Below are positions 1-14,754 of a stretch of DNA of 64,000 bases, piece after piece. The number at the start of each line of letters is the position of its first letter. Position 1 is the stretch's first letter. The DNA lies in NCBI RefSeq assembly GCF_030063305.1, contig NZ_JASISV010000002.1, forward strand, positions 62,001-126,000. The letters are read 5' to 3'. Origin of the DNA: Salinibacterium sp. G-O1. Lineage in GTDB: Bacteria; Actinomycetota; Actinomycetes; Actinomycetales; Microbacteriaceae. The position numbers and the translations under genes are program-made. The notes below the pieces were generated by a model. The model did no database searches. It saw only the letters and a list, made by a program, of their open reading frames with translations, and was not told the origin of the DNA.

Positions 1-1725
1 AGCGAGTTCGAAGCCTCATTTGTGGACAACCCTCCGGACGTTCCCGTTGGCCTCCTGGAACCGAAGATGAGCGCCAAGGCGTTCGCGACATCAAAGGTTG
101 ACTGGAACCCGCTCGCGGTGCGGGACATCTACGGGGACTCCGTACTGGACGACCTCATCAGCGTCAACGCTGACGACACCATTGCGTGGTTTGTAATCGA
201 GACCATTGCCGACCTGCGCTGGGGCGACATACCGTCGCTTCGCGCGACTGACTACACCCTCGTAGCTTTGTACCTTGATCGTGCCCAAGGCCTCCTCTAC
301 GTCCACTGTTCTGACACGAAGCACGGCCTCGATGACGTCGTGGAGGCTGTGCTTGGGCACGAACCGAGACCGCTCAGCGGGTACGAGACTTTCAAGGTCT
401 TCTCGAATCTCAACCGACTTATTCCCACTAACATTGGGCTTCTCGACGCCCGTGATCGTGACAAGCGGTTCTCTATGCATGTCGGAAGTGACGTGGAGAC
501 GGCGCTGACGGAGGCTGAGCGCACGCACAAGACCAACACGCACGTCGCAGCCAAAGCCTTCGAAGACGGTGAACGCGTGTCCATCGCTGCGTCACTCTCG
601 GGTAGATTCTGGTCGATGCGCACCGCGCCTAACCTCGCCGAGTGGCGAACCTGGTGCCAGCAGCAAGGAACCAAGCTGCGTGACGGCAGCGTCGACGTTC
701 ACTCGCTTTTCCGATCCATGATCATCCCTGTTGACGTGAAGGAGCGACCAGCCCTCCCGATCCTCGGGATGGAGTGGCCTTGGGACCTCTACCTGGGAAA
801 TGGCACATCCTCCAGACTCAGCTACAAGGATTCAAGCGTTCTAATCACCGATGCTGAGTTCAGGATTGATGACTATCGCACCAGTGGCCCGCTCCACTTC
901 TCCATCCAGACCCCAGCCTGGGAACTGAGCTATGAGGGACAGTTCGGCCCTAATGGTCTGCACTATCGGGCGCTAGGCGATGAGGCAGAGGTCGTCGGAT
1001 GGCGGGACGCGAAGACGCCCTTCTCCTCCTGGCTCAACAACCACAAGCCAACGCTTTTCTTGTCTGGAGATCGCATGATAACCGGTGATGATCGGCTTCT
1101 GGCACCGCGGACCGAACTGCCTCCATACCCTCGCGAACAGTTTCGAGCGCTTGACTGGGTGGGCAATGGCGTCGATATCACGGTGGAATCGCAAGGAGTC
1201 GAGCGCAAGACGAACTCAATCCAGGCCTACATGGCCCGATACCTTTCGGAGAACCAGACCTTCGACGCCCTCATCGATGACGACCGTTCAGGTGAAGCAG
1301 CTGATCTCGTGGGCATCCGTGTCTACAAGGGCGATCTTCACGTCACACTGGTGCATTGCAAGTACTCTTCCGCGACTACTGCGGGCGCACGCCTCGCTGA
1401 CTTGTATGAGGTCTGCGGCCAGGCGATGCGAGGAGCGCGGTGGCGTGATAACGGCGCTCTGCCGTTGCTTGAGCATCTCGATCGCCGGGCACAGGCCTAT
1501 TCGCGAAGGACTGGAGGCAGCCCGTTCGAGATCGGCGACCGAGAAGCCCTGTTCCGAATCCGGCAGCAAGCGCCGCAGCTATTCCCGCGCGTCTCAACCG
1601 TCATCGTGCAGCCAGGCCTCAGCATCAGTGCATCTTCGGACGAGCAGCTTCGGCTGATCGCTGGTGCCGCCTCATACGTGCAGAGTGTTACCAAAGGTAG
1701 CTTCGATGTTTACGCCTCCGACTGA
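1..1725 (+). CDS. C-terminal part of a large defence-type protein with a PD-(D/E)xK-like nuclease motif (5' end outside window)
   Basis: The frame is open from the first base of the window, so the true start lies upstream and only the last 574 residues are visible. Around residues 420-456 there is an acidic stretch (DDDRSGEAADLV) followed by a strand ending in HCKYS. That is the D...E/D...K layout of a restriction-like nuclease fold. This tail resembles the C-terminal regions of long DEAD/DEAH-helicase-type proteins in bacterial defence islands, but no helicase motifs are visible here because the N-terminus is missing. Its neighbours (DprA, AlbA_2, IetAS- and Gabija-type genes) support a role in defence. 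The helicase link is inferred from memory of similar tails, not seen. An unusual stand-alone nuclease is the main alternative. Confidence 0.6.
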   Translation, partial: SEFEASFVDNPPDVPVGLLEPKMSAKAFATSKVDWNPLAVRDIYGDSVLDDLISVNADDTIAWFVIETIADLRWGDIPSLRATDYTLVALYLDRAQGLLYVHCSDTKHGLDDVVEAVLGHEPRPLSGYETFKVFSNLNRLIPTNIGLLDARDRDKRFSMHVGSDVETALTEAERTHKTNTHVAAKAFEDGERVSIAASLSGRFWSMRTAPNLAEWRTWCQQQGTKLRDGSVDVHSLFRSMIIPVDVKERPALPILGMEWPWDLYLGNGTSSRLSYKDSSVLITDAEFRIDDYRTSGPLHFSIQTPAWELSYEGQFGPNGLHYRALGDEAEVVGWRDAKTPFSSWLNNHKPTLFLSGDRMITGDDRLLAPRTELPPYPREQFRALDWVGNGVDITVESQGVERKTNSIQAYMARYLSENQTFDALIDDDRSGEAADLVGIRVYKGDLHVTLVHCKYSSATTAGARLADLYEVCGQAMRGARWRDNGALPLLEHLDRRAQAYSRRTGGSPFEIGDREALFRIRQQAPQLFPRVSTVIVQPGLSISASSDEQLRLIAGAASYVQSVTKGSFDVYASD

Positions 1726-1837
1726 TGGGTAATTCGTGAAGGTTGTGCATGGACAACGAGACCGACACGCGGTTGTGCTCCGTCCGTTCTCGGGTGCGCA
1801 ATCGTTTTCAGTTAGCCGCGTTGAAACGGATGAGTGA

Positions 1838-2845
1838 TTACCGACCTCGTGAATTGATTGTCTGACCCGTCCGCACCGTTTCTGTTTGAACTGCTTGCGT
1901 CAGTTCTACTTGGCGGTGGTTGTTTTTGTCGCTGCCGGTGAGCCTTATGACGTCTCCGGAACTTGCGACCAGACGGGCACGTCCGTCCTGAAGAAGGGTA
2001 TTGGAGCCATAGCTGGCGGCACTCGTCACGGGGCCAGGAACCGCACCGACTGAGCGACCAAGCTCCGCTGCTTCGTCGGCGACACGCAGCGATCCTGATC
2101 GCGCGCCCGCCTCAACGATCACCGTTGTCGAGGAGAGCGCGGCCATAATCCGGCCACGATCGAGAAAACGCTGCCGTGTTGGTGCAACACCCGGTGCAAC
2201 CTCAGAGACGAGGAGACCTTGTTGCTCAATACGCGCAAACAGATCCGCGTGTCCGGCAGGGTATGCGCGATCGACCCCACCCGCGAGGACTGCAATCGTT
2301 CTTCCACCGGTCGCCAGCGCCGACTGGTGTGCGACTGCTTCGATACCGTAGGCACCGCCAGCGACAACGACACGGCCACTGAGCGCGAGGTCACTGGCGA
2401 GTTCAATCGCCATGTGGTCCCCATACGCGGTGGAGGCGCGCGCACCGGTCAGCGTGATGCGGTCGGCGAGAGGCTTGGCCAGCAGCGCAGTCTCGCCACG
2501 CGTCCAAAGTGCATATGGTGTGCGTGCTCCGAGATCGTTGAGGGCGACTGGCCAATCCTTCTCACCCGGAATAAGGACCCGGAGGCCTTGTCGCTCGAAG
2601 GCCGCCATCTGTGTGGCCAAGGTGTCGGCGCTGCTCACAGCGTGCAAGCGTTCGCGCCATACTGCCGCTGCGATTTGGTCGAGGCCGGGCACCGTGCCGT
2701 CAGCATCAGCGAGGCGGAGCAGTTCTACAGCGCCGACTCGGCCAAGGAGACCACCGGTCGTTTGATCATTCGGTGCAGCCACGATTGAGAGAACGGTTCG
2801 CGCGCTCCGCTCGTCGTGCGCGAGCGAGGAGAGGGAAGTCATCAT
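1838..2845 (-). CDS. dprA: Accessory DprA/Smf family protein
   Basis: DprA proteins have a Rossmann-like fold that binds single-stranded DNA; the chromosomal version loads RecA during transformation. The 335-residue protein keeps the family layout: TLTGARAS near residue 130, VVAGGAYGIEAVAH in the middle, then AVLAGG, SEVAPG, DRGRIMAAL and SGSLRVA. Several signature positions differ from the canonical form: GGAYGIEA instead of SGLARGIDA, RGR instead of RNR, and SGSLRVA instead of SGSLxTA. This suggests a divergent accessory paralogue rather than the housekeeping gene. The start is ATG with AAGGAG just upstream. The small membrane-protein gene at 3033 is transcribed divergently about 190 bp away, and a remnant of a second dprA with the same leader lies at 3502-3558. 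The position in a defence island suggests nucleic-acid sensing, which is inference. Confidence 0.85.
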   Translation of the reverse strand: MMTSLSSLAHDERSARTVLSIVAAPNDQTTGGLLGRVGAVELLRLADADGTVPGLDQIAAAVWRERLHAVSSADTLATQMAAFERQGLRVLIPGEKDWPVALNDLGARTPYALWTRGETALLAKPLADRITLTGARASTAYGDHMAIELASDLALSGRVVVAGGAYGIEAVAHQSALATGGRTIAVLAGGVDRAYPAGHADLFARIEQQGLLVSEVAPGVAPTRQRFLDRGRIMAALSSTTVIVEAGARSGSLRVADEAAELGRSVGAVPGPVTSAASYGSNTLLQDGRARLVASSGDVIRLTGSDKNNHRQVELTQAVQTETVRTGQTINSRGR

Positions 2846-3032
2846 CGGGCTCCTTCACAGCCAGTCATCACTGTGGAGGTGAACAGAGCCGCCCTTTCCT
2901 ATGTCGTTGGTTCGGCGTACCCTTGGATCCAGGCGACACACTCAATGTTCGCCATCGCCCGCGCGATGGCATGACGGCCCCAGGGCAGTCCTCCAAGGTT
3001 CAACGTTGCCGAGCCATGAGAGGACCGTTGTC

Positions 3033-3419
3033 ATGTTTCGAATCATCTGGGTTATCAGCATTCACCTCCGCAACTTCATGCGCAGGTACATGCCGACCAA
3101 CATCCTGCTCGACGCGATTCGCACCCGCCGCGGGCTCAAGTGGGGCGTGCCCGCGATGCTCCTCGCCATCCCGTATCTCGTCGCCGCGAGTACCTGTACG
3201 GCGCTGATCGACGGGGGAGCGTCCCGCTGGCTCTACGTCGTTGCCCTTGTCTGCATCTGGAACGCGCTGAAGTTCATCGTGATCGGGCCTGTATCGGTTG
3301 TGGTTCTGCTTAAAGGGCGGAATGCGGAGGGGAGAGCCTGGCCGCGACAGCAGCCGCGTTCACCCCGATCGAGTAAAAAACTCTACGAACAGAACAAGCA
3401 GCTACTCCCGGAAACCTAA
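3033..3419 (+). CDS. Small two-helix membrane protein, copy 1 (often labelled sulfate permease-like)
   Basis: A 128-residue protein with an amphipathic basic N-terminus (RNFMRRYMPTNILLDAI), a helix at about residues 41-62, a second helix at about residues 68-93 and a basic hydrophilic tail. Relatives in Microbacteriaceae are commonly labelled sulfate permease, but the protein is far too small to be a SulP transporter and no function is established. The start was set at ATG 3033 because similarity to the second copy at 5229 begins there. The roughly 100 bases upstream are also shared by the two copies, including a GC-rich block (CGCCATCGCCCGCGCGATGG). It faces away from dprA across a shared intergenic region. 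A membrane effector controlled by the DprA-like protein is one hypothesis; nothing in the sequence proves it. Confidence 0.7.
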   Translation: MFRIIWVISIHLRNFMRRYMPTNILLDAIRTRRGLKWGVPAMLLAIPYLVAASTCTALIDGGASRWLYVVALVCIWNALKFIVIGPVSVVVLLKGRNAEGRAWPRQQPRSPRSSKKLYEQNKQLLPET

Positions 3420-3501
3420 GGAGCCGACTCCACCGGATCCAGGACACATCAATATCTCGCAAGAGCTGTCCGGTCGAGGGGGCGTTCGGCGCCGCAACAA
3501 C

Positions 3502-3558
3502 CTAGAGGGCCATGCGGGCGATGCGTTCATCGCGGCCAAGTTCGGAGAGTGCAGACAT
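3502..3558 (-). pseudogene. 5' remnant of a second dprA (first 18 codons, then stop)
   Basis: Read on the minus strand, an ATG at 3558 preceded by AAGGAG gives MSALSELGRDERIARMAL and then TAG. This matches the N-terminus of the intact DprA at 2845 (MTSLSSLAHDERSARTVL) residue for residue in spacing, with about half identical. The leader (GAAGGAGCC before the ATG) is also shared. No further dprA sequence is visible to the left, so the rest was deleted. Being so short, it was identified only by alignment to the neighbouring gene. A short leader peptide is an unlikely alternative. Confidence 0.6.
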
Positions 3559-3588
3559 CGGGAGGCTCCTTCGTGGTCAGAGATCACC

Positions 3589-3624
3589 GTGAAGGTGCGC
3601 GGTATCGACCTTCCGCTTGTCGTG
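3589..3624. repeat. 36-bp direct repeat, copy A (flanks AlbA_2 gene)
   Basis: The 36 bases starting GTGAAGGTGCGCGGTATCGA recur at 5067-5102 with two differences. Copy A lies just upstream of the dprA remnant; copy B lies upstream of the second membrane-protein gene. The AlbA_2 gene sits between them. The sequence belongs to the divergent intergenic region of an ancestral dprA/membrane-protein locus, so the repeats mark the edges of an inserted or recombined segment. Confidence 0.8.
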
Positions 3625-3756
3625 ATCCTGAACGACCTCGATCCATGCCCGCCCGGCCCCACCTGGCGGCCATCGTCGTCACAGAACGTCCGATGGGCAG
3701 CACTCCCTCGCGAACAAATCCTCGATACGAGCCATCTTGATGTCTATGTTTGTGGG

Positions 3757-4998
3757 CTAGTCATCTGCCTCGGGCGGCGCGGAAATCATATGCAAGTAAG
3801 TGATCCCGCCTTGATTCACGCAGTCTTCAGCCAGGTCATGAACTTGCCGATGGAAGTAGTCGTTGGATCCTGTCGCAGTGATCGTCGAGGTGACGGGGGT
3901 GAATCTCCGCAACGGCGTGGAGGCTCCGTCGTAGGTGAGGTTCGAGCCATCGACCGTGAGTATGGATAGCGGTTCGTTTCCAACCCATTCGACACCGACT
4001 CTCACTTCGTACTCGTCAGTGTGGAACACATCCGCTGTCGCGCGGATCAAAGCCATGAAGTCGGCTACTGCTCCTTCGATGCCGCGGCCCTCGACCTGCC
4101 ATCCGTCAAAGTAGCCGTCAGCGCTCTTTCGGTGTCCGCCGAGCGCGAATGCCAAACTCACGGACCCATCATGGTGCACACTCGCGCAGGCTTCCTGCCA
4201 TCGTTGACTGCCAGTCGCGGCGTTGACAGCAGTCCAGCGGCGTAGCCCCGGGCGTGGGTTGAGATAGTCGATGTTCTCGACCGGGTGGATGCCGCTGCGG
4301 TTCGAGTAGGTAAGCGTGATTTCCCGTGCGCGTTCGAAGACCTTCCGCACCACGCCGCGGTCCGGGCGGGCGAGCACTGGGATGCGCGGATGCGCGGCGG
4401 CGATTAACCATGCCCTTCCAGAGGTGTCGTGTTCCTCAACGGACTCTCTGTAGAGGCCGTCGAGAGCGTCCGTGGCACGTAGCCGCTCGTTGAACCGCGC
4501 ACGATACATGGCCTCGATCTGCCGCTCTTTCATCCATGCGGTGTCCGCGTCGTTGCGGATGGGTGCGCCGAAGTAGTCATTCTTGTAGATCAGATGCGGG
4601 CCATCCACGCTTGCCGGAACGCTCACGGCAACGGCTCGGGTATTGATTCCGAGCCGATGGATTTCTATGCCGAACACTGGCGGGACGATCGCTGTGACGG
4701 CCACACTTCGATAGGCACGTTCATGCCCTTCGCTGAACTCGCCAGTGTCTGCGCGGCCAGTTGCTACCTTCTGATTCTCCTTGACTCCATAGACGATCAT
4801 TCCGCCGCCGCTGTTTGCCATTGCGGCGATGTCCTTGGGGACATCAGTTTGCGAGAGGTTCTTGATCGGGGGAAGCTCCGACTTCCAGTCCAGATCGTCA
4901 GTTTCGACCGCACCGGCCGCAACCGCGGCGTTAAGGATCTCGTCGGTAAGTATGCTCGGCGGCAGCCCGAGCGCGCGGTGCAGCGGAGTGAAGCTCAT
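3757..4998 (-). CDS. AlbA_2 (Schlafen-like) putative DNA-binding protein
   Basis: A 413-residue protein with an AlbA_2 domain at about residues 30-150: an acidic-aromatic start (ETDDLDWKSELPP), DIAAMANSGGGMIVYGVKE, and the later GPHLIYKNDYFGAPIRND segment typical of this fold. AlbA_2 domains bind nucleic acids and occur in transcription regulators and in bacterial and eukaryotic Schlafen proteins. Residues after about 170 match no family I recognise. It is transcribed against its neighbours and flanked by the two 36-base direct repeats, so it looks like a separately acquired unit. A role in phage defence is suggested by context only; a transcription regulator is the alternative. Confidence 0.75.
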   Translation of the reverse strand: MSFTPLHRALGLPPSILTDEILNAAVAAGAVETDDLDWKSELPPIKNLSQTDVPKDIAAMANSGGGMIVYGVKENQKVATGRADTGEFSEGHERAYRSVAVTAIVPPVFGIEIHRLGINTRAVAVSVPASVDGPHLIYKNDYFGAPIRNDADTAWMKERQIEAMYRARFNERLRATDALDGLYRESVEEHDTSGRAWLIAAAHPRIPVLARPDRGVVRKVFERAREITLTYSNRSGIHPVENIDYLNPRPGLRRWTAVNAATGSQRWQEACASVHHDGSVSLAFALGGHRKSADGYFDGWQVEGRGIEGAVADFMALIRATADVFHTDEYEVRVGVEWVGNEPLSILTVDGSNLTYDGASTPLRRFTPVTSTITATGSNDYFHRQVHDLAEDCVNQGGITYLHMISAPPEADD

Positions 4999-5066
4999 GC
5001 CCCAAGGATAGGGATGACCACCGACGTGGGGTCACGCAGACCTGAAAGTGAGCGGTGGGCAAGGCG

Positions 5067-5102
5067 GTGAAGGCGCGCGGTATCGATCTTCCGCTTGTCG
5101 TG
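5067..5102. repeat. 36-bp direct repeat, copy B
   Basis: Second copy of the 36-base repeat at 3589-3624, differing at two positions. After it the sequence continues into the leader of the second membrane-protein gene, in the same order as the leader of copy 1 (GGTTCGGCGTACCC at 2909 compared with GGTCAGGCGCACCC at 5102). Confidence 0.8.
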
Positions 5103-5228
5103 GGTCAGGCGCACCCTTGTGGGAAAGGCGACTACATTCAAAGTTCGCCATCGCCCGCGCGATGGCACGACAGCGCCCGGGCAGTCCATCAAGTTTCTTC
5201 GTCGCCGGACCACGAGAGGACTGTTGCG

Positions 5229-5576
5229 GTGCTTCGAATCATATGGATCGCCAGCTTCCACATCCGGCAATTCATGCGCCGGTACATGCCGACGAACATC
5301 CTGCTCAACGCCATACGCACCCGCCGCGGCCTCAAGTGGGGCGTCCCTGCGATGCTGCTCGCTCTGCCGTACCTCTACGTTGCGAGCGTCTGTGCCGCAC
5401 TCATCGACAACGGGGGTCCCGGGTGGCTCTACCTCATCGCCCTCGTCTGCGTCTGGAACGCGCTCAAGTTTGTGTGGATCGGGCCGGTGAGCGTTGGCTT
5501 GCTCGTACGAACGCGGGCCGCGGAAAGCCGGGATGCGCATGCTTCTCGTCCCCAGCGCTCGTCTGCTTCGGCATAG
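5229..5576 (+). CDS. Small two-helix membrane protein, copy 2
   Basis: A 115-residue paralogue of the protein at 3033. The first 95 residues align without gaps and most positions are identical (MRRYMPTNIL, IRTRRGLKWGVPAMLLA, WNALKF, IGPVSV). The C-terminal tail is different and shorter. The start is GTG 5229, placed by alignment with copy 1. The conserved leader block CGCCATCGCCCGCGCGATGG is present about 80 bases upstream. Its original divergent partner appears to be the dprA remnant at 3502-3558, now separated from it by the AlbA_2 gene. The strong conservation of the helices relative to the tail suggests selection on the membrane part. Function unknown. Confidence 0.68.
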   Translation: MLRIIWIASFHIRQFMRRYMPTNILLNAIRTRRGLKWGVPAMLLALPYLYVASVCAALIDNGGPGWLYLIALVCVWNALKFVWIGPVSVGLLVRTRAAESRDAHASRPQRSSASA

Positions 5577-5801
5577 CGCAAGGGCCACATTTGCACGCGA
5601 CGGCTTCGATCGCTTGGGCGACGATCGACGCGTACGGTCGGGCTGAAATCTCGTGCGTGTCGGTCTGGTCATTTAGCGCTCCCAACAGCCGACGAATCTA
5701 TATCGTTCTGAGAACACCTTGGCCGCTCAGACGCAAATCCCGGGTCGGGTTGTCGGAGGTCACCGGTAGTGTCCGAGCACACGAGCGAACAGGAAGAACC
5801 T

Positions 5802-6512
5802 ATGTCATCCGATCAGTACCGCTTCCCCGTTGCGGTCTCGCAGCTGAGCGAACAAGACTCACGCGAATCACAGAACGCGCGCGCTATCGCCTGGCTTCTG
5901 GCGCAGAACGGCGGGCAGATTGTTGTTGTAACGCCGCAGAAGCAGTTCGAGGGGGCGAGCCTCAAACGCCTCGTCGCGCGCGCAGACACCATCCACCTCA
6001 CATGGCGAGCATTTTCCCCGGGGTCGCTCGCTCACCGTCGCGTCATCTACGCCTGGCCAGATCGCCAGCACCTAAACGACCTCTGGGGTGTCGATGCCGA
6101 CGCACTTGTCGTCATCGAATGGGGAGAGGCCGAAACCGCGACGTGGATCGAAGACGTGCGACCAGTAGGGCTCCTCAACGGCCGCACGGAGCAGCCATCA
6201 ACCCAATCCGATTCTGAGGCGGCGGTCGCGACACTGCCGAACGGCGTCGAGGAGATCCTCGAACACATTGCCGATTGGGCCGCCGGGTACGACTCCGGTC
6301 TGAAGTGGAACGAGGAAGACAAACTCAAGGCCGACATGATGAACTGCCCAGAGCGCTGGGTGTCGGTCACAGTTGACCAGGTCCGCGCCAAATGCCGGGC
6401 GTTGAAGATGCGACCCAACGACGTCGACACGGTCGCTGGCTTCCTGCAACGACGCAAGGACGGCCACAGGTTCAACGTGAGGAGCTCCTACCGGGACTTC
6501 CGTTTCGCGTAG
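5802..6512 (+). CDS. Unrecognised protein upstream of IetAS
   Basis: A 236-residue soluble protein I do not recognise. The ATG at 5802 is preceded by AGGAAG at a good distance, better than the in-frame GTG at 5769. The N-terminal half (about residues 1-125) alternates short strands and helices (QIVVVTPQKQ, ADTIHLTWRA, HRRVIYAWPD, DALVVIEWGE), suggesting a Rossmann-like or nuclease-related alpha/beta domain. The C-terminal half (about residues 150-236) is helical and basic and ends in RSSYRDFRFA. It is 110 bases upstream of the AAA ATPase gene on the same strand, so it may share a promoter with the IetAS pair, but it could be independent. Confidence 0.6.
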   Translation: MSSDQYRFPVAVSQLSEQDSRESQNARAIAWLLAQNGGQIVVVTPQKQFEGASLKRLVARADTIHLTWRAFSPGSLAHRRVIYAWPDRQHLNDLWGVDADALVVIEWGEAETATWIEDVRPVGLLNGRTEQPSTQSDSEAAVATLPNGVEEILEHIADWAAGYDSGLKWNEEDKLKADMMNCPERWVSVTVDQVRAKCRALKMRPNDVDTVAGFLQRRKDGHRFNVRSSYRDFRFA

Positions 6513-6622
6513 CGCGCCCGCATGGGCTCGGAGCGTTGCTCGTGCGCCTCCAGTCACAGGAATCGGGAACCGATACCATGAGAGCAATCGACGATACGCA
6601 ATAGTGGGGGAGGAGGTGCACC

Positions 6623-7591
6623 ATGGCAGGACTCGGACAGCACATCACCGCGATGGTGCGCAGCCATGCGTCTGGTGACGAAGCAAGTTTCTACTCTGTG
6701 GCTCTTCAGATCGCTGCGCGAGAAGCCAAGGCGGGCCACCACGTGCTGGCCAACGACATCAAAAAGGCCGTTGATGCTTCTCGCGAGCGTGCGCCGCTTG
6801 GTAATGTCACGACTCTTGCGCAGCCGCGCGGCGAAATTGCCGAGCTAGTCGAAGCGACGCATCCCGACGTCCACTTGCGTGAACTGGTTGCTACCCCTGA
6901 TCTCGTTGCTCAGATCAAGCAGGTCCTGGCTGAGCAACGGCAGAGGAAGAACCTTCTTGATCATGGGTTCACTCCTGCGCACCGGTTGCTACTCGAAGGT
7001 CCGCCCGGAACGGGAAAGACCATGACGGCGGCCGTGCTCGCGACTGAACTGTCATTGCCGATGTTCACGATCCGGCTCGATAGCCTGTTGAGCAAATTCA
7101 TGGGTGAGACCGCCAGTAAACTCCGGCTGGTCTTCGATGCCGTAGCACAGCGCCGCGCGGTTTACCTCTTTGACGAGTTCGACGCACTCGGCGGCGATCG
7201 GTCCGGAAACGACGTCGGCGAAGCTCGCCGTATCCTGAACTCGTTTCTCGTCTTCCTCGAAGAAGCAAGCCCCGAATCTCTCGTCCTCGCCGCGACCAAC
7301 CACCGTGCGATCCTTGACAAAGCACTCTTCCGCCGGTTCGACGCAGTTCTTACCTATGCGCTGCCCGACGCACGTCAAGCCGCAGCGGTCATCAAGGCTC
7401 GACTCGGCACGCTTGCTAGCGGAACCAGCCTGGCGAAGCTGGGAGATTACACGTCCGGTCTCAGCCATGCTGAACTGGTCAAAGCAGCTGAGACAGCAGC
7501 GAAGACTGTGCTGATGCGTGGCGAGCGCGCTGTGGGGCGTGAAGATCTGATCGTGGCCTTGACCGCGCGTCGAACGGCGAGCCTTGGCTGA
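6623..7591 (+). CDS. ietA: AAA+ ATPase of an IetAS-type defence pair
   Basis: A 322-residue AAA+ ATPase. Walker A is GPPGTGKT at residues 126-133, Walker B is YLFDEFDALG at about 176-185, sensor 1 is LAATNH near 226, and the arginine-finger/pore region LDKALFRRFD follows. The N-terminal 100 residues are helical. The start is ATG with an excellent GGGAGGAGG ribosome site. It overlaps the subtilisin-like protease gene by eight bases, indicating coupled translation. An AAA ATPase paired with an S8 protease is the IetAS arrangement, first described as a plasmid-stability pair in Agrobacterium and later as an antiphage module. The ATPase probably controls or feeds the protease; that is family-based inference. 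Confidence 0.83.
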   Translation: MAGLGQHITAMVRSHASGDEASFYSVALQIAAREAKAGHHVLANDIKKAVDASRERAPLGNVTTLAQPRGEIAELVEATHPDVHLRELVATPDLVAQIKQVLAEQRQRKNLLDHGFTPAHRLLLEGPPGTGKTMTAAVLATELSLPMFTIRLDSLLSKFMGETASKLRLVFDAVAQRRAVYLFDEFDALGGDRSGNDVGEARRILNSFLVFLEEASPESLVLAATNHRAILDKALFRRFDAVLTYALPDARQAAAVIKARLGTLASGTSLAKLGDYTSGLSHAELVKAAETAAKTVLMRGERAVGREDLIVALTARRTASLG

Positions 7592-10121
7592 GGTCGGACG
7601 AGATCTCGACCACCTCTACGTTCACGGATACGCCGAGGCAGCAGACTTCCACCGCAAGATATCTCCGCGTGCTAAGCGACGCGTCGTCTCTCGTGGCGAA
7701 CACGGGGCGGGGCTAAAGAACTCCGCCGAGGATGCATTCACCAGTTTCGACGCGGATTTAGATGAGCGGATACCTACTGACGATGAGCTTCGCGCAACTG
7801 GGACGGTGATCGTGCTTGAAGGGGAAGGCGCGACCTTCCCCCTCAAGATCGATTCTCTCAACGCATACACGAGCGGTCGTGCTCGGAAACTGAAATGGCT
7901 CCTGCTCTCGGTGCGGGGAGGTAGAGATAGCGAGCCGGAGTTGGCAACGGTGTGGGTCTCCGATGCCTATCGGCAGGAGTTTCTCAAGCTGTTCCAGGAC
8001 TTCCTTGATGTAGAGACGATCAAAGGAAACCCGAAGAACCAGGATCTCATCGCCAACATTTCTCGGATTCGTCGCGCGGTGTTGTCGGACCTTTGGACCT
8101 CTGAAGGAGAACCGGCTCGTAGCGGCACTCATTGGTGGGAGCTGTGGCTTGATAGTGACAGTGAGCACCTCGCCACGCTCGATGGATTCGTTCAGACCTA
8201 CCGGATGCGTTCCCTCTCTCGTTCATTGAGGTTGCGGGATCGCGTCATTGTGTGGGTTGAGGCCAGCTGGAAACAGCTGGAGATCTTGCCGTTCACGTCG
8301 GTTCCGATCATGGAAATTCGTAAACCCGAGTTCATCGACACGGTCGAGGATCTTTCTGCCGATGAACAGCTCGATTACGTCACGGACCTCGCTGGGCGCA
8401 TCGTGCCTGCGAGTGAAGACGCGCCCGCCGTGTGCCACCTCGACACCGGTGTGATGCGTACGCATGCCCTTCTCCGAGACTCGCTCTCGATTGCTGACCA
8501 TCACACGATTTTTGGCTCGGAAGCGACAGCCAGCGATGTGCACGAGCGTGGTCACGGCACTTCGATGGCTGGATTGGCATTGTTCGGCGATCTCGAACCG
8601 CTGCTCGTCGCGAGTAACGAGGTTCGTCTTCGTCACCGACTTGAGTCGGTCCGCATGTGGCCGACCAAGAGCGAGCATCAGCAACAGCCGCTTGATCTCG
8701 CTAGCGCAACCGTGCAAGCTGCAGCGTTACCGGAGGTTGTTAGTCAGCGACGACGAGTGTACTGCTTGACGCTGAGCACCGCTCCAGATCGCCCTGGTGA
8801 GCCCACTCTCTGGTCCGCTAGCGTCGATGCCCTCGCCGTTGGCACTGATAGCACTCGCGATGGTGATCAGATCCAACTGCTCTCAGAGCCCGACTTCGAC
8901 CAGGCGCGTCTAATCCTCGTCGCGGCAGGCAACGTTGCTCCGCCATATATCGATGACCACCGGACCTACTCTGCGACATCTCCGATTGAGGATCCCGCGC
9001 AGGCGTGGAACGCTCTCACCGTCGGCGCATACACCGACCTTGTCGAATTGCCGACACACCCGCAATATGCAGGTTGGGCTGCGATTGCGGGAGTAGGAGA
9101 TCTCTCGCCGCACAGCCGCACTTCTACGTTCTTTGACAGGAAGCGGTGGCCAATAAAGCCGGACATTTGCATGGAGGGCGGAAACGTTCTCCCAGACGGT
9201 GCAGGTGGTTACCACGAGCGACACTCTTCGCTTTCGCTCCGTTCGACGGGGCACACGAGTGACGTGGCACTAACCTCGGCAAACGCCACCAGTGCCGCAA
9301 CCGCCCAGGCCGCTCGGCTAGCGGCACTTGCGATGGATCGGTATCCCGCATATTGGCCCGAGACGATCCGAGGCATGCTTACGCACTCAGCAGAGTGGAC
9401 TGAGTCGATGAAGCGAGATCTTGATGTTGATCACCGGAAGGGTTCACGTCATCATCTCCTACGCCAGTTCGGCTGGGGCGTACCTACCGAAGAGACAGTG
9501 CTCAACTCGTCTCGGCGTGCTGTCACGCTGGTTACTCAGGATGAGTTCGTTCCGTTTGAAGGCTCAAGCTATGCGATGCGTCAGTTCCGGCTGCATTCGC
9601 TCCCTTGGCCTACGGACATCCTGCAGGACCTTGGCGAAGCAGAAGTTCGTCTCCGCGTCACGCTGTCGTATTTTGTCGAGCCTTCGGCCTCTCGCCGCGG
9701 GTGGCGAAACAAATACACGTATCCGTCGCACAGGCTGCAATTTGACCTACAAGGTCGGACTGAGAACCAAACTGAGTTTGTGGCACGGGTTAACCGGGAA
9801 GCTCAGAACTCCGAAGAAGGATCTGCTCCCGGACAGAACGAATCCGAACGCTGGTTTTTGGGCGCTCAAGCTCGCCACCTTGGTTCTCTGCACCAGGACG
9901 AGTGGCACGGTACCGGTGCCGAACTTGCTCACTGCAACAACGTTGCTGTTTACCCGGTCGGTGGCTGGTGGAAGAACAACCACCGAGTTGATCGACGGGA
10001 CACTCCTGTCCGATATTCCCTCCTGCTCTCGCTACAAACGAAGGAGCAGGGTGTCGACCTCTACGCTCCGATCGCCACACAGCTCCACGTCCCGATCGCA
10101 ACTGCGATCGCGGCAACCTGA
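7584..10121 (+). CDS. ietS: S8 (subtilisin-like) serine protease of an IetAS-type pair
   Basis: An 845-residue protein with a subtilisin-type catalytic triad: Asp287 in CHLDTGVMRTH, His324 in ERGHGTSMAG and Ser570 in NATSAATAQAARLAA. The oxyanion-hole Asn is in LVAAGN near residue 450. About 270 residues precede the triad and a beta-rich C-terminal region of about 270 residues follows. There is no signal peptide, so it acts in the cytoplasm, as expected for a defence protease. The start is TTG 7584, overlapping the ATPase gene by eight bases. The pair matches IetAS in order and domain content. The target is unknown. An AAA-protease quality-control pair outside immunity is the alternative, but the location argues for defence. 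Confidence 0.83.
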   Translation: MAEVGRDLDHLYVHGYAEAADFHRKISPRAKRRVVSRGEHGAGLKNSAEDAFTSFDADLDERIPTDDELRATGTVIVLEGEGATFPLKIDSLNAYTSGRARKLKWLLLSVRGGRDSEPELATVWVSDAYRQEFLKLFQDFLDVETIKGNPKNQDLIANISRIRRAVLSDLWTSEGEPARSGTHWWELWLDSDSEHLATLDGFVQTYRMRSLSRSLRLRDRVIVWVEASWKQLEILPFTSVPIMEIRKPEFIDTVEDLSADEQLDYVTDLAGRIVPASEDAPAVCHLDTGVMRTHALLRDSLSIADHHTIFGSEATASDVHERGHGTSMAGLALFGDLEPLLVASNEVRLRHRLESVRMWPTKSEHQQQPLDLASATVQAAALPEVVSQRRRVYCLTLSTAPDRPGEPTLWSASVDALAVGTDSTRDGDQIQLLSEPDFDQARLILVAAGNVAPPYIDDHRTYSATSPIEDPAQAWNALTVGAYTDLVELPTHPQYAGWAAIAGVGDLSPHSRTSTFFDRKRWPIKPDICMEGGNVLPDGAGGYHERHSSLSLRSTGHTSDVALTSANATSAATAQAARLAALAMDRYPAYWPETIRGMLTHSAEWTESMKRDLDVDHRKGSRHHLLRQFGWGVPTEETVLNSSRRAVTLVTQDEFVPFEGSSYAMRQFRLHSLPWPTDILQDLGEAEVRLRVTLSYFVEPSASRRGWRNKYTYPSHRLQFDLQGRTENQTEFVARVNREAQNSEEGSAPGQNESERWFLGAQARHLGSLHQDEWHGTGAELAHCNNVAVYPVGGWWKNNHRVDRRDTPVRYSLLLSLQTKEQGVDLYAPIATQLHVPIATAIAAT

Positions 10122-10342
10122 GCCTGACCGCTCAAGCTCTTTCGCAGCGCCGCGGCTTGACGCGATAGCTGGCATCCTTGAATGTATCAGTTCGAGCTGA
10201 AGCGATCTGTCTCCTTGGGGCACCGCTCGGCGCACAAAGTCGCGCTACCAGGCATCCGGATCGATGAAGGAAAATGAAATCAACGAGGATCACAAGCGCG
10301 CATGCTGTGAAAGCCAAATGACAAGAGGACACCGATAACTCA

Positions 10343-12526
10343 ATGCATATCTCAAAAGTGTCTCTCGTCAACTACCGCAATTTCGAACGCACTAACGTTT
10401 ACCTCCAACCCGGCGTCAACACCATCATCGGAGAGAACGGATCAGGAAAGTCGAACCTTTTCCGTGCCATGCGCCTCCTACTTGACGACACGTTCGCCAC
10501 ACGAAGGCACGACCTCGAAGAGAGCGACTTTCACCGTGGTCTTACCGACTGGCGCGGGCACTGGATCGTCATCATGATGGAGTTCGATAACGTCAGCGAT
10601 GACGAGGCTGTCCAGTCGCTGCTACTACAGCACGCTGCCGAAGAGTCCTCGGGGGACACCGAACGGGCGACCTACTCACTGGTATTCAGGCCCAAGGCTG
10701 AAGTCCGCGACGGCCTCGCCGCACTGCAAGATGGGGATCGTGCTGGACTGGCAGAGCTTCGCGCCACGATTACCCTCGACGACTACGAACGTGTTTTCCT
10801 CGGCAAGATGAGTGTCGACCTCACAGACCGTGAAGAGTACACGCGCATCGTTGGTGACTTTGATGCGGTGATCTTCCCATCCGACAACAACGGCACTGCG
10901 CCTACATTTGCGGATGAGGTCGGGATCAAGATCCAGCGAGATATGTCGTTGTGGCGGGAGTTCTCGCTCTCCTTTGTTCCGGCACTTCGGAACGTTGTCG
11001 CCGACTTCAACGACCCCAGGAAGAACCCGCTTCGGACGCTCCTCGCATCCAAGAGTGAAGAGATCCCCGAAGGTGATTTCGATGACATCCTCAGAAAGGT
11101 TCGCGAGCTAAACAAAGATATCGAGAGCCGGGATGATGTTCAGGAGATCACTCGTGGCATCCAGAAAACTTTCAAGGAGACTGTCGGAGAGACTTACTCA
11201 CCAACATCAATGCGGATCCAATCGGAGCTTCCGCTCGAGGCCTCTGACCTTTTCCAGTCACTCAAGCTCTATGTCGGCGAGCACGGCGACTCGGAACCGA
11301 GACGCCTGCACGAGATGAGCCTCGGCGGTGCCAATCTTGTCTTCTTAACGCTGAAACTTCTCGAGTTCGAGTATCGAACCGCGAGACAGGCAATCGCCAA
11401 CTTTCTGCTTATCGAAGAGCCCGAAGCACACATCCACACTCACGTTCAGAAGACTCTGTTCCACAACGTCGCGTACGAGAACACGCAAATCATCTACTCG
11501 ACTCACTCGACGCACATCTCAGAAGTGAGCGAGATTGAACGCGTGAACGTGCTCTCGCGCGAGGGCGAATCATGGGTCGCCCTCCAACCAGCGACCGGCC
11601 TCGACCCCGCAGACGTCCATTCCGCCGAACGCTTCTTGGATGCCGTGCGTTCCAACCTGCTCTTCGCAAGAAGCGTGTTGCTGGTCGAGGGTGATGCCGA
11701 GGAGATCCTGATCCCAAATCTCGTCAAGAAGATCTACGGCATCAGCTTGGACGAAATCGGTGTCAGCCTCATCAACGTGCGCAGCACTGGCTTTGAGAAC
11801 CTCGGGAACCTCTTCCATGAGGATCGTCTGCGCAAGCGGTGCGCAATCTTGACCGACCATGATCAAGTCTTCTTCGACGCCGATCCGGATGATGGTGATA
11901 CAGAAGTAGTCGCAAAACGGAAGCGCAGAGCTTTGGCTTCAGCCAAGGCTGGGGCCGCACGAAAGATCCGTCTCGATGATTTTGCGGCTGACAACGATTA
12001 CCTCGATGTCGCGTATGCGCCGCACACTTTCGAAGTGGACTTCGCCGAAACGTCGGGGATCAACCGGGAAATTCTCAGCGCTACTGTGGACGAGGTTTAT
12101 AAGAAGAGCGGGGAACGTAAGGTACTCAAAACAGCACTGGCAGACTCGGATATCGCGTCGTACGGCAAAGCGGCGCTTCAACTCGCTACTAAGGCGAAGA
12201 AGGGCTGGTTCGCACTCCTCCTCGGCAGATGGCTTGACACTGCCGACCTGGATGGCGGCCCTGTGCTACCCGGCTACGTACTTGACGCGCTCGGTTTCGC
12301 GGCTGCAGAGCTCCCGCCAGAGACCTGGGTGCGCATCATCGAGCACCGAATCGATCAATGGAAGGGCTCAAGGAGCACCACCTCGAATGAGGTCGCCGCA
12401 GCGCAGATGATTCTCGATGAGCTCAAGTCTGGGGATATTGATATCGAATCTGCTCTAGTGAATATCGAACGAGATACTTATGCTGACTTCCGTCTTATCG
12501 GCTTGGCACGAGCCTTCGGAAAATGA
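10343..12526 (+). CDS. gajA: OLD-family ATPase/TOPRIM nuclease, GajA-like (Gabija)
   Basis: A 727-residue class 2 OLD protein. The ABC-type ATPase half has Walker A GENGSGKS at residues 30-37, a signature-like MSLGGANLV near 327, Walker B FLLIEEPEAH near 354-364 and the H-loop YSTHST near 387. The TOPRIM half has VLLVEGDAEEILIP near 446 and AILTDHD near 500, giving the acidic metal-binding residues. In Gabija, GajA is a nucleotide-sensing DNA nickase that forms a complex with GajB. The helicase gene follows with a four-base ATGA overlap, the standard Gabija order. The protein is longer than the commonly studied GajA (under 600 residues); the extra length is in the C-terminal region. It could be another OLD-plus-helicase variant. 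Confidence 0.8.
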   Translation: MHISKVSLVNYRNFERTNVYLQPGVNTIIGENGSGKSNLFRAMRLLLDDTFATRRHDLEESDFHRGLTDWRGHWIVIMMEFDNVSDDEAVQSLLLQHAAEESSGDTERATYSLVFRPKAEVRDGLAALQDGDRAGLAELRATITLDDYERVFLGKMSVDLTDREEYTRIVGDFDAVIFPSDNNGTAPTFADEVGIKIQRDMSLWREFSLSFVPALRNVVADFNDPRKNPLRTLLASKSEEIPEGDFDDILRKVRELNKDIESRDDVQEITRGIQKTFKETVGETYSPTSMRIQSELPLEASDLFQSLKLYVGEHGDSEPRRLHEMSLGGANLVFLTLKLLEFEYRTARQAIANFLLIEEPEAHIHTHVQKTLFHNVAYENTQIIYSTHSTHISEVSEIERVNVLSREGESWVALQPATGLDPADVHSAERFLDAVRSNLLFARSVLLVEGDAEEILIPNLVKKIYGISLDEIGVSLINVRSTGFENLGNLFHEDRLRKRCAILTDHDQVFFDADPDDGDTEVVAKRKRRALASAKAGAARKIRLDDFAADNDYLDVAYAPHTFEVDFAETSGINREILSATVDEVYKKSGERKVLKTALADSDIASYGKAALQLATKAKKGWFALLLGRWLDTADLDGGPVLPGYVLDALGFAAAELPPETWVRIIEHRIDQWKGSRSTTSNEVAAAQMILDELKSGDIDIESALVNIERDTYADFRLIGLARAFGK

Positions 12527-14334
12527 CGTCAGGTTTGCAAGACCTCAACCCTGAGCAGCGCGCAGCGCTAGAAGCAGACGGCGATGTTCTGATCATCGCG
12601 TGCCCAGGCAGCGGAAAGACCCGGACCCTGACTCACAAGATCGCATCAGAGCTATCGCAGGTTTCATCGCATCGCGAATTCGTCGTGGCACTCACATACA
12701 CGCACGTCGCTGCCGAAGAGATCCGAGACCGCATTGAGGCTATGGGGATCGACACCACCCAACTCTGGGTTGGCACAATCCATAGCTTCTGCCTCACCTG
12801 GATACTCCGACCATATTCGCTCTACCACGAAGCTCTTAAAGACGGGTTCAGTGTGATTGACACCTTTGAGAGCGAAGAACTGCTCGGTGAGATTGCCAAG
12901 CGAAATCCGCCGCTCAAGGGCCAGTTTGACTGCAAATACTATGCAACCGAACTTGGCTTTTCTCTCGACAAGAGCACTCCAGAGGAAAACATCGATCCTC
13001 TGCGGTCGACGATCGCGGAGTACCACGAGCGGTTACTCGAACAGAAGCAGATCGACTTCGAGATGATGCTCAAGTTCGCCCACGACCTCATCACTAATCA
13101 CCTGCCGATTGCGAAGCGGTTGGGCCAGCTCTTCCGGATTGTGGCGATCGATGAGTATCAAGATACGAGAGACATCCAGTACTCGATTGTCTCGAAGATC
13201 ATCCGAGAACCAAGCTCGAAATCGCGGCTCTTCGTCGTGGGGGACCCCAACCAAGCGATTTTCGGTTCGCTCGGCGGTGTTGCCAAGACCGCCGGAGAAC
13301 TCGCCGCACTGACGGGTCGCCCGGTGAATGAACTCGCGCTTCGGAGCAACTATCGTTCGTCGCAACAAATCGTCGAATACTTCAGCAACTTCGCAGTCGC
13401 TCCGATGGAGATAGAAGCTGCGGGGGAATGGCGAGACTGGAGCGGGCATCTCGTCCACGACATAAGCCTTGATAAGACGGAACTCGTTCAAGGTGTCGCC
13501 GAGCTAATTAGACACAATGTTGAAGTTCTTGGTGTCCCGTCTGAGCAAATCTGTATTGTTGCTCCCTGGTGGCTTCATTTGGCCTCGATCACCAGATCAC
13601 TCGTACAAGCGCTTCCCGAGTATGAGTTCAATGGGCCTGGACTGTCACCATTCGGCCAGAACCTTGATAACTTCTGGTACAAGGTCGCTCGGATCGCACT
13701 CACTCATTCGGCCCCCGACATGTTTCGCCGCCGCATCCGATGGGCGCGAGAGGTCATCGAGGAACTCGCTACGGCTGGTTATGTTAGGGACGACCTGAGC
13801 GCGAGGGACTTCCTAAAAGCGACCAATGGAATCGAAGTGCCAGGGACGAGTGGAACACGGTTCCTTACCGAGTACTTTGATGCCTTCTGTGCCGCATTCG
13901 GCTTCGTGCCAAGAGTCGATTCCGAGCTCGCATTCCAGCGCGAGAGTTTCTTCGACCGAATGCAGAGTCGACTGGCGCGCATTCAGAAAGACGAAGGCGT
14001 CGACGTTGACGATCTCGAAACCTTCAGAAAGGTGTTCCGCCCACGAAATGGCATCGTGGTCTCGACCATCCACGGAATCAAGGGTGCCGAGTTTGACTCC
14101 GTCATCGCGTTCGGGCTACTCGAAGGTATCGTGCCGCACTTCGGCGAACCCGCGTATGAGAAGACTGATGTCGCGAACAAACTGATGTTCGTTATCGGCT
14201 CCAGAGCGCGCAAGCACCTCTACCTCATCTCGGAAACTGGACGAGGTAATCAGTGGTATCCGAAATACCAGACCAGCGTACTCAAAGGGCTCGCCACGTA
14301 TCCCTACACTTCTCGTCTTATTACGCGGCTCTGA
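12523..14334 (+). CDS. gajB: UvrD/PcrA-like helicase, GajB-like (Gabija)
   Basis: A 603-residue superfamily 1A helicase. Motif I is ACPGSGKT at residues 26-33, motif Ia is ALTYTHVAAEEI, Walker B is VAIDEYQDT near 207-215, motif III is VGDPNQAIFGS near 240, motif IV is LRSNYRSSQQI, and motif V is VVSTIHGIKGAEFD near 512-526. It is longer than the studied GajB (about 500 residues). The start codon overlaps the end of the OLD gene by four bases, so the two products are likely made in step and act together. In Gabija the helicase is proposed to sense or unwind DNA ends and activate GajA. It ends about 340 bases before the tRNA fragment that closes the island. Confidence 0.8.
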   Translation: MTSGLQDLNPEQRAALEADGDVLIIACPGSGKTRTLTHKIASELSQVSSHREFVVALTYTHVAAEEIRDRIEAMGIDTTQLWVGTIHSFCLTWILRPYSLYHEALKDGFSVIDTFESEELLGEIAKRNPPLKGQFDCKYYATELGFSLDKSTPEENIDPLRSTIAEYHERLLEQKQIDFEMMLKFAHDLITNHLPIAKRLGQLFRIVAIDEYQDTRDIQYSIVSKIIREPSSKSRLFVVGDPNQAIFGSLGGVAKTAGELAALTGRPVNELALRSNYRSSQQIVEYFSNFAVAPMEIEAAGEWRDWSGHLVHDISLDKTELVQGVAELIRHNVEVLGVPSEQICIVAPWWLHLASITRSLVQALPEYEFNGPGLSPFGQNLDNFWYKVARIALTHSAPDMFRRRIRWAREVIEELATAGYVRDDLSARDFLKATNGIEVPGTSGTRFLTEYFDAFCAAFGFVPRVDSELAFQRESFFDRMQSRLARIQKDEGVDVDDLETFRKVFRPRNGIVVSTIHGIKGAEFDSVIAFGLLEGIVPHFGEPAYEKTDVANKLMFVIGSRARKHLYLISETGRGNQWYPKYQTSVLKGLATYPYTSRLITRL

Positions 14335-14673
14335 GTTATCACCTGACGTGCAGGCTATTTCGACTGAAACGGAATATGTGGGTGCGCTGCACCGCCTCGC
14401 CGTTGAAGGAGCATTAGAACCGTTTTGCGAGAGATGCCGGACTGATGGCGAGTAGCGCCTAGCCTCGCCGTCCTCATTCGATTTGGTTGGCACCTGGTAT
14501 GAGGTGGTTGCGCCTTCCGAACGTACAAGACGGAATGCCACGATCCTCCTCGCTTAGCAGAGGGGACCAAAAGGGGACCAAAATCATGCAAACCAAGCAT
14601 CTCTTGACGTTCCTCGCATGATCTGACCCGCAGAATCATGCGGAATCCAGCTCGAACCAAGCCGTTTGGACGC
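14335..14673. other. Island-end gap before the tRNA fragment
   Basis: No intact gene. The stretch contains a short open frame ending at 14607 that resembles an integrase tail (see the separate entry) and two tandem copies of GGGGACCAAAA at 14562-14583 that belong to that frame. Nothing else is recognisable. Confidence 0.5.
14503..14607 (+). pseudogene. Possible C-terminal tail of a tyrosine integrase
   Basis: After a stop at 14500-14502, a short frame ends in RLAEGTKRGPKSCKPSIS and then TGA. The GTKRGPK-type ending resembles basic tails I associate with actinobacterial tyrosine recombinases, and the position next to a tRNA-type att site is where an integrase would be expected. There is no start codon, no catalytic residue and no upstream homology visible. 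A chance frame is a serious alternative. Confidence 0.25.
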
Positions 14674-14717
14674 CTGGGGGTCAAGGGGTCGCAGGTTCAA
14701 ATCCTGTCAGCCCGACA
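14674..14717 (+). other. att-type site: 3' fragment of tRNA-Pro(GGG)
   Basis: The sequence reads as a tRNA from the anticodon loop to the 3' end: loop CTGGGGG with anticodon GGG, anticodon stem TCAAG, variable loop GGGTC, T-arm GCAGG-TTCAAAT-CCTGT, acceptor strand CAGCCCG, then A and CA. The expected 5' half (acceptor CGGGCTG and the D-arm) is missing upstream, so this is not a functional gene. A tRNA 3' fragment is the usual product of integration by a tyrosine recombinase, marking one end of the island. A C/G acceptor pair with discriminator A fits tRNA-Pro. Confidence 0.85.
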
Positions 14718-14721
14718 ATGT

Positions 14722-14754
14722 GCCCCGGATTTCTCACGAAGTCCGGGGCTTTTT
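14722..14754 (+). terminator. Rho-independent terminator after tRNA fragment
   Basis: An eight-base-pair perfect stem (GCCCCGGA with TCCGGGGC) around a 12-base loop is followed by five T residues. It lies five bases after the tRNA-Pro 3' end and is most likely the native terminator of that tRNA gene, kept at the distal att site. It also insulates the island from downstream DNA. Confidence 0.85.

What the first reader, a model, noticed from the sequence alone, without database searches (positions are those of the whole stretch)
1838..5576. Duplicated dprA/small-membrane-protein locus, with one copy opened by an AlbA_2 gene
Copy 1 is intact: dprA (minus, 1838-2845), a shared intergenic region, then a two-helix membrane protein (plus, 3033). 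Copy 2 exists in two halves: a dprA 5' remnant (3502-3558) with the beginning of the intergenic region, and the rest of the region with a second membrane protein (5229). Joining the halves at the 36-base repeats recreates an intergenic region that aligns with copy 1 (CATCGGG..CTCCTTC, then GGTTCGGCG/GGTCAGGCG..ACCCTTG, then CGCCATCGCCCGCGCGATGG). The AlbA_2 gene fills the gap. Either it inserted with duplication of 36 bases, or two dprA loci were fused around it.
Basis: seen in the sequence. Interest (0 to 1): 0.75.

Follow-up and report, generated by a model that had tools for sequence, protein, structure and literature searches.

The report
Fused mobile-element arms with leader RNA
The doubled gene block is a scar where the arms of two related conjugative elements were joined, and its "shared intergenic region" looks like a structured RNA leader, absent from the RNA library searched, in front of an uncharacterised small membrane protein gene of such elements.

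Summary
The duplication is real but is no simple gene duplication. Window 1809-3293 (dprA, intergenic region, mem1) is 92.6% identical to an element of Cryobacterium PH31-AA6. Window 3457-14729 (34 codons of a second dprA, AlbA_2, leader, mem2, IetAS, Gabija, tRNA-Pro 3' end) is colinear with C. fucosi. AlbA_2 and both 36-base repeats lie inside that second part, so AlbA_2 did not open the locus here. Two integrated conjugative elements (ICEs) were joined, 5.8 kb past the 3' end of a TrwC (MobF) relaxase gene. The shared region is the mem promoter plus a ~100-nt leader with covarying helices, predicted to bury the Shine-Dalgarno sequence. In 299 family genomes 62 of 65 leader hits end at a mem start; 41 of 48 genomes with this relaxase subfamily carry mem; where mem lies within 12 kb of such a relaxase gene (39 of 56) it is always past its 3' end. 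The leader matched no Rfam family in the searches made, the protein no Pfam, NCBIfam or PADLOC model. Best reading: a translational leader RNA controls a small ICE membrane protein. What opens the leader, and what the protein does, are unknown.

The parts
1838..2845 (-). DprA-like gene, ICE-linked (copy 1, intact)
   Evidence: PF02481 2e-58; PADLOC ShosA model 2.6e-46; in the tree apart from the genome's two other DprA genes, with a long-branch warning
2895..2923 (+). mem1 promoter-like boxes: TTTCCT, 17 nt, TACCCT
   Evidence: read from the sequence; TANNNT in this place in 62 of 64 leaders, 0 of 64 in a control stretch further upstream
2930..3032 (+). leader of mem1 (class I)
   Evidence: model R2, 69.7 bits, E 5.2e-13 over 1.28 Mb (both window copies were in the training set); covariation in class I
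2932..2937 (+). 5' strand GGCGAC, predicted to pair with GTTGCC 3005-3010 (pseudoknot)
   Evidence: helix paired in 99.5% of cells of A3, but with one-side changes only
2951..2970 (+). hairpin P2, GCCATCGC / GCGATGGC
   Evidence: 7 of 8 pairs with double changes in A3
2986..3027 (+). anti-SD CAGTCC 2986-2991 against GGACCG 3022-3027 (5 of 6 pairs here), around SD GAGAGGA 3018-3024
   Evidence: helix 3 of A3, 85.3% of cells paired; predicted SD accessibility 0.17 against 0.43 in shuffles
3033..3419 (+). mem1, small membrane protein; conserved core about codons 1-86
   Evidence: matches in 54 of 299 family genomes, own included; dN/dS of the core 0.05-0.22 against five relatives
3294..3456 (.). 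junction zone: homology to PH31-AA6 ends at 3293 (to L006 at 3307), to C. fucosi begins at 3457; no match over 20 nt for 3291-3456 outside the own genome in the 114 loci then held
3457..3558 (-). dprA 5' remnant, 34 codons
   Evidence: tblastn codons 2-34; colinear with C. fucosi, 83% identical in this stretch
3589..3624 (+). 36-base repeat, copy a
3757..4998 (-). AlbA_2 (Schlafen-type) gene
   Evidence: PF04326 1.1e-9; 94% identical protein at the same place in C. fucosi; no PADLOC model
5067..5102 (+). 36-base repeat, copy b, holding the -35-like TTCCGC (5089-5094) of mem2
   Evidence: read from the sequence
5112..5117 (+). mem2 -10-like box, CACCCT here, TACCCT in C. fucosi
   Evidence: win2 is one of 2 of 64 leaders without TANNNT; C. 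fucosi sequence
5125..5228 (+). leader of mem2 (class I)
   Evidence: model R2, 81.4 bits (in the training set)
5229..5576 (+). mem2, small membrane protein (GTG start; ATG in C. fucosi)
   Evidence: 66% identical to mem1; start codons; dN/dS against C. fucosi 0.21
6623..10121 (+). IetA / IetS-like pair, cargo of the same segment
   Evidence: PADLOC IetA 2.4e-65, IetS 3.3e-32; far below the NCBIfam equivalog cut-offs
10343..14334 (+). Gabija pair GajA / GajB, cargo
   Evidence: PADLOC GajA 4.7e-269 and GajB 7.3e-216; Pfam
14674..14717 (+). 3' end of a tRNA-Pro gene, probable attachment site at the right end of the ICE
   Evidence: 97.7% over 44 nt to the 3' end of tRNA-Pro (ggg) 6823-6897 of L038; no whole tRNA gene in the window; two copies flank mem in L044 and in L102

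Best explanation
The locus is a composite cargo zone of an ICE with a TrwC (MobF) relaxase. A left arm (relaxase, cargo, dprA, leader, mem1) was joined at 3294-3456 to the right arm of a C. fucosi-type ICE (34 codons of its dprA, AlbA_2, leader, mem2, IetAS, Gabija, tRNA-Pro 3' end). That gives the tandem pair. What the halves share is a functional module: a conserved promoter, a ~100-nt leader and the small membrane protein gene mem. Proposed working: the leader RNA folds into a hairpin P2, a helix that pairs an anti-SD with the Shine-Dalgarno sequence, and a pseudoknot between its 5' end and the loop of that helix; translation of mem stays low until the fold opens. Shown: shared arms, covarying helices, tight leader-mem link, relaxase-mem link, purifying selection on the mem core. 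Inferred: that the leader acts as RNA, that it represses translation, and that mem serves the ICE itself (transfer, establishment or exclusion) rather than one cargo gene.
For: Arms: window 1809-3293 = L035 at 92.6%, window 3457-13517 = L041 at 98.35%, continued to 14729 at 99.4%. The own relaxase (C2:54536-58084) matches L035 and L037 at ~90% DNA identity, C. fucosi at 72%. Leader: class II (A2) 96.7% of cells paired, 58 double-change cells against 21.3 in shuffles; class I (A3) 94.5%, 41 against 15.7. G-U against A-C cells 31:4 and 74:8, which points to this strand and to RNA. 62 of 65 genome hits end at a mem start, within 15 nt; of the other three, two are leader remnants with pieces of a decayed mem and one looks like chance. 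79 of 80 mem loci carry it and there is no hit elsewhere in 1.28 Mb (46 of the 79 were training sequences). SD unpaired probability 0.16 against 0.27 with shuffled leaders, lower in 49 of 65. Relaxase (at least 45% identity) in 48 and mem in 54 of 299 genomes, both in 41, Fisher p 1e-31; mem past the relaxase 3' end in 39 of 39 within 12 kb, same strand in 37.
Against: No expression or probing data. The two control measures least touched by relatedness are weaker: pairs with a double change 2 of 500 shuffles in class II but 54 of 500 in class I; further pair types 187 and 121 of 500. The class I pseudoknot has one-side changes only; in class II, 2 of its 7 pairs have double changes. The class I anti-SD helix fails in 15% of cells, and in class II it was not counted because it could not be aligned. 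In 16 of 65 leaders the SD is not less accessible than in shuffles (L105 among them). 16 of 78 near-full mem rows had no leader hit. 17 of 56 relaxase loci have no mem within 12 kb and 13 genomes have mem without this relaxase; 21 of 80 loci showed no relaxase, 8 of them with short flanks. C. fucosi DNA upstream of its relaxase also matches the own left arm at 76-86%, so the left arms are kin too. The five same-genus genomes of the sample have neither gene.
Confidence: 0.7

Rival explanations
1. The conserved stretch is a DNA site (oriT or a target of the relaxase or another protein) and not an RNA leader; its hairpins act in single-stranded DNA.
For: It lies near a relaxase gene, has inverted repeats, and in 25 of 80 loci the relaxase match ends 143-194 bp before the mem start, where the promoter and leader begin.
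Against: G-U pairs outnumber A-C 105 to 12; it ends at the mem start codon; a TANNNT box begins 11-21 nt upstream of its 5' end in 62 of 64; its orientation follows mem, not the relaxase (15 of 80 loci have the relaxase on the other side and strand).
Confidence: 0.12
2. DprA-like plus mem is a defence or toxin-antitoxin pair like ShosTA, with mem as membrane effector and DprA as sensor or antitoxin; AlbA_2 is an added or alternative effector.
For: DprA-like within 2 kb of mem in 37 of 80 loci, in three orientations; PADLOC ShosA hit; DprA homologues act as antitoxins in shosTA, syrTA and rqlHI (passage of PMC9122126).
Against: 43 of 80 mem loci showed no DprA within 2 kb (some flanks are short); the relaxase is seen in 59 of 80; DprA shows dN/dS 0.34-0.63 against mem 0.05-0.22 (the dprA values were computed without a codon alignment and may be inflated); in C. 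fucosi dprA is split by an IS1595-type transposase gene while mem is intact.
Confidence: 0.2
3. AlbA_2 is a mobile gene that inserted into copy 2 with a 36-bp duplication.
For: Direct repeats of 36 bp flank it.
Against: The same arrangement is in C. fucosi; the repeat is a promoter piece found throughout the mem family; the only ORF over 220 aa between the repeats that has a domain match is AlbA_2 itself.
Confidence: 0.1
4. The leader-mem core is kept mainly as homology for swapping cargo between ICEs.
For: In the mem1 lineage (nine copies) DNA homology of 89-96% stops at +242 to +275 after the mem start in 33 of 36 pairs; window and C. fucosi differ up to +171 of mem2 and then show no mismatch until +481; G041 has a truncated leader at the relaxase 3' end and a full leader-mem about 13 kb further on.
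Against: The pairs are not independent, and in other lineages the ends are spread or lie at gene ends. Purifying selection on the protein and covariation in the leader need a function of their own.
Confidence: 0.15

Closest known systems
Structured translational leader RNAs (riboswitch-like pseudoknots such as preQ1-II or SAM-II; recalled)
   Same: Short 5' leader, pseudoknot, anti-SD helix next to the start codon.
   Different: No Rfam match in the searches made; found here only in front of one gene family of mobile elements; ligand or signal unknown.
ShosTA / DprA-linked toxin-antitoxin systems
   Same: DprA-like protein in a mobile, defence-rich locus; PADLOC ShosA models match.
   Different: No phosphoribosyltransferase among the window proteins scanned; mem often occurs without DprA.
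MobF (TrwC) conjugative elements of Actinobacteria
   Same: TrwC domain PF08751 with helicase domains, cargo past the relaxase gene. Passages of PMC6868719 describe trwC beside the sad cargo genes in Microbacterium.
   Different: The passages read do not mention a leader RNA or a small membrane protein.
Short RefSeq 'sulfate permease'
   Same: Name given to mem homologues in two of the five plasmid records that match.
   Different: No Pfam or NCBIfam match; ~115 aa with two long helices in the model, far shorter than a SulP transporter (recalled).

Membership tests
Known Rfam family | score above the gathering cut-off of any family | tested here: not met
   window 1700-5900 at E <= 1: none; 20 loci at gathering threshold: one tRNA only; class II leader of L074 at E <= 5: three matches far below cut-off, all on the other strand
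Structured cis-regulatory RNA | covarying helices, in this strand | tested here: met
   weaker on two control measures, see the Against line
Structured cis-regulatory RNA | fixed position upstream of one gene family | tested here: met
Structured cis-regulatory RNA | changes expression of the gene | not testable with these tools
   needs reporter assays
ShosTA | DprA-family ShosA | tested here: met
ShosTA | phosphoribosyltransferase ShosT beside it | tested here: not met
   no such domain in the window proteins scanned (8)
MobF ICE | TrwC relaxase | tested here: met
   PF08751 7.5e-90 in the own genome, 5.8 kb upstream of the window's dprA
MobF ICE | secretion genes, coupling protein, integrase and two attachment sites | tested here: inconclusive
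   an M23 peptidase upstream; one tRNA-Pro 3' end at 14674-14717, no second copy in C2:30001-62100; integrase and left end not located

The most novel reading that the evidence does not exclude
A new class of pseudoknotted leader RNA, carried by a whole family of MobF ICEs, senses a cue of conjugation (for example entry of the element into a recipient) and switches on a small two-helix membrane protein that secures the new host, and this module is also the point at which ICEs exchange defence cargo.
Probability: 0.2. Interest if true: 0.85.

Novelty: new variant of a known kind. Interest (0 to 1): 0.6.

Why it matters
It gives a testable RNA element and an uncharacterised protein for a large family of actinobacterial conjugative elements that carry defence systems, and it shows how such elements can gather cargo by swapping arms. 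It also questions a misleading annotation ('sulfate permease').

Tried and rejected
Rejected: recent AlbA_2 insertion (same order in C. fucosi); leader as a stand-alone RNA gene (no hit away from mem in the loci searched). Led nowhere: PDB profile search of mem (one match, E 1.1); AlphaFold model of mem (mean pLDDT 73.5, pTM 0.39) and Foldseek (33 matches with E <= 10, none <= 0.001); phage collection (no match); viral contigs (2 loci); phylum-wide sample (4 of 396 genomes, own included). Literature: searches; PMC6868719, PMC6305408 and PMC9122126 seen as passages only, other papers as listings; no passage or listing seen describes the leader. These are open PMC papers only, so absence from print is not shown.

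Limits and dropped rows: the mem loci L035-L114 are the best 80 of 273 found. In the family-wide leader and relaxase searches only 12-13 and about 2 candidates per genome were scored, so those counts are lower bounds. One search kept 107 upstream stretches (matches starting at residue 1-2, at least 250 nt, no N); L007, whose upstream stretch does not align, was dropped and 106 were reduced to 65 below 92% identity. L068, L014 and L028 were left out of A2/A3; L068 out of the promoter count. The class II anti-SD helix was not counted because its columns did not align.
Full report
What is there. The window (contig C2:62001-126000 of a 3.14-Mb genome) opens in the cargo zone of an integrated conjugative element. 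A TrwC relaxase gene lies at C2:54536-58084 on the + strand, 5.8 kb upstream of the window's DprA-like gene.

Origin of the tandem. Window 1809-3293 matches Cryobacterium sp. PH31-AA6 (L035) at 92.6%; the own relaxase matches those of L035 and L037 at ~90%, that of C. fucosi at 72%. Window 3457-13517 matches C. fucosi (L041) colinearly at 98.35%, and the match runs on to 14729 at 99.4%, across the 3' end of a tRNA-Pro gene. The C. fucosi-like part therefore brought 34 codons of its own dprA, AlbA_2, both 36-base repeats, leader, mem2, IetAS and Gabija. No relaxase of this family was found inside the window. In C. fucosi that dprA is itself split by a ~1-kb insert with an IS1595-type transposase gene. 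So the window holds the left arm of one ICE and the right arm of another; the left arms of the two are kin as well (C. fucosi DNA upstream of its relaxase matches at 76-86%). Identity to C. fucosi is 83-98% per 100 nt from 3457 to 5456 and 99-100% from there to 6600; within mem2 the last difference is at +171 and the next at +481. The right-hand cargo was thus probably exchanged more recently than the leader, with a crossover inside or just after mem2 (inference).

The shared region. Upstream of mem the same layout recurs across Actinobacteria: a TANNNT box in 62 of 64 leaders (control stretch 0 of 64), a TT[CA]C box 17 nt further up in 50 of 62, then ~100 nt of leader that ends at the start codon. 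Two sequence classes appear to share one architecture. In class II (A2, 30 sequences) the 5' strand GAGGCRG pairs with CYGCCTC, with two hairpins between: 96.7% of cells paired (37-52% when slid), 58 double-change cells against 21.3 in shuffles. In class I (A3, 32 sequences, window copies included) P2 has double changes in 7 of 8 pairs, the 5' strand GGCGRC can pair with GTCGCC in the loop of an anti-SD/SD helix, and 94.5% of cells are paired (27-58% when slid); 41 double-change cells against 15.7. The class I pseudoknot varies on one side only, and two control measures are weaker (pairs with a double change: 2 and 54 of 500 shuffles reach the observed value; further pair types: 187 and 121 of 500). 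G-U exceeds A-C 31 to 4 and 74 to 8. Predicted SD unpaired probability is 0.16 on average against 0.27 with shuffled leaders, lower in 49 of 65; mean folding z-score -1.70.

Link to mem and to the relaxase. In 299 genomes of the family (an even draw), models R1 and R2 gave 65 hits at E <= 0.01, of which 62 end at a mem start (within 15 nt); 62 of 78 mem rows that begin at residue 19 or before have a leader hit; eight further mem rows are fragments. Of the three other leader hits, G041 is a truncated leader with a piece of mem behind it, directly at the relaxase 3' end, G193 is a leader in front of a decayed mem, and G195 lies in what looks like coding sequence. Over 88 sources (1.28 Mb) the models gave 85 hits, all at mem starts: 79 of the 80 loci L035-L114 (L068 missed), two in the window, and L115, L117, L118, L119; L116, with a partial mem, and L187/L188 had none. 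46 of the 79 were used to build the models. The relaxase subfamily (at least 45% identity) occurs in 48 of 299 genomes, mem in 54, both in 41 (Fisher p 1e-31); 13 genomes with only a more distant TrwC have no mem. Of 56 relaxase loci, 39 have mem within 12 kb, all past the relaxase 3' end, 37 on the same strand. Among the 80 best mem loci, 59 show the relaxase: 25 with its 3' end 143-194 bp before mem, 19 further off, 15 on the other side and strand, again with the 3' end towards mem. Mem is patchy: 4 of 396 genomes in a phylum sample, none in the five same-genus genomes of the family sample.

DprA and AlbA_2. DprA-like genes lie within 2 kb of mem in 37 of 80 loci: 15 divergent, 14 codirectional downstream, 8 convergent; AlbA_2 in 6 of 80, of which L069 and L073 are identical for 1.5 kb on either side of mem. 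The ICE-linked DprA proteins stand apart from the genome's other two DprA genes and one unlinked DprA in the tree, with a long-branch warning. They look like cargo or partners, not obligate parts.

The protein. Mem has a conserved core to about codon 86 and a variable tail, helices at 34-60 and 66-106 in a model of moderate confidence, and no match in Pfam, NCBIfam or PADLOC and none of use in the PDB. Its core shows dN/dS of 0.05-0.22 between mem1 and five relatives. In window copy 2 the -10-like box is CACCCT where C. fucosi has TACCCT, and the start is GTG where C. fucosi has ATG, which may mean that the extra copy is running down (inference).

How it most likely works. The leader keeps mem translation low by burying the SD; the pseudoknot steadies that fold; some cue, unknown, opens it. 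Mem probably serves the ICE itself, since in the 80 loci it goes with the relaxase (59) more often than with any other neighbour clustered or counted. Function as a toxin or as an effector for DprA is the main rival.

Verdict. The duplicated locus as such is an ordinary product of ICE arm exchange. What makes it worth attention is the leader and mem, for which no described family was found with these tools.

Noticed in passing
mem1 lineage: L006, L035-L040, L094 and window 3033-3419: DNA homology of 89-96% stops at nt +242 to +275 after the mem start in 33 of 36 pairs, with different C-terminal tails behind it; three pairs run further (+295, +463, to the end).
   Followed up: partly
L200 (G041:C4:280001-295000): Truncated leader with a piece of mem at the relaxase 3' end and a full leader-mem about 13 kb further on, preceded by a copy of the relaxase gene's 3' end; the two stretches are 94% identical over 188 nt: a second case of a module doubled around cargo.
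   Followed up: yes
L044 12-54 and 9071-9116; L102 5812-5859 and 13980-14028: Two copies of the tRNA-Pro 3' end flank mem in each locus, as attachment-site repeats of an integrated element would.
   Followed up: no
L035 8424-8666: Decayed second mem just behind the intact one.
   Followed up: no
L187 1365-4082: MmeI-type restriction-methylation gene upstream of the relaxase.
   Followed up: no
window 22-1725: 567-aa protein with no Pfam, PADLOC or NCBIfam match between relaxase and dprA.
   Followed up: no
window 5769-6512: 247-aa protein beside IetAS, also in C. fucosi; only a weak PatG_D match, below cut-off.
   Followed up: no
G208, G138, G134, G268: At one relaxase locus in each, the nearest mem lies 26-53 kb on the other side; in a circular form of the ICE it could again lie past the relaxase 3' end (inference).
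   Followed up: no
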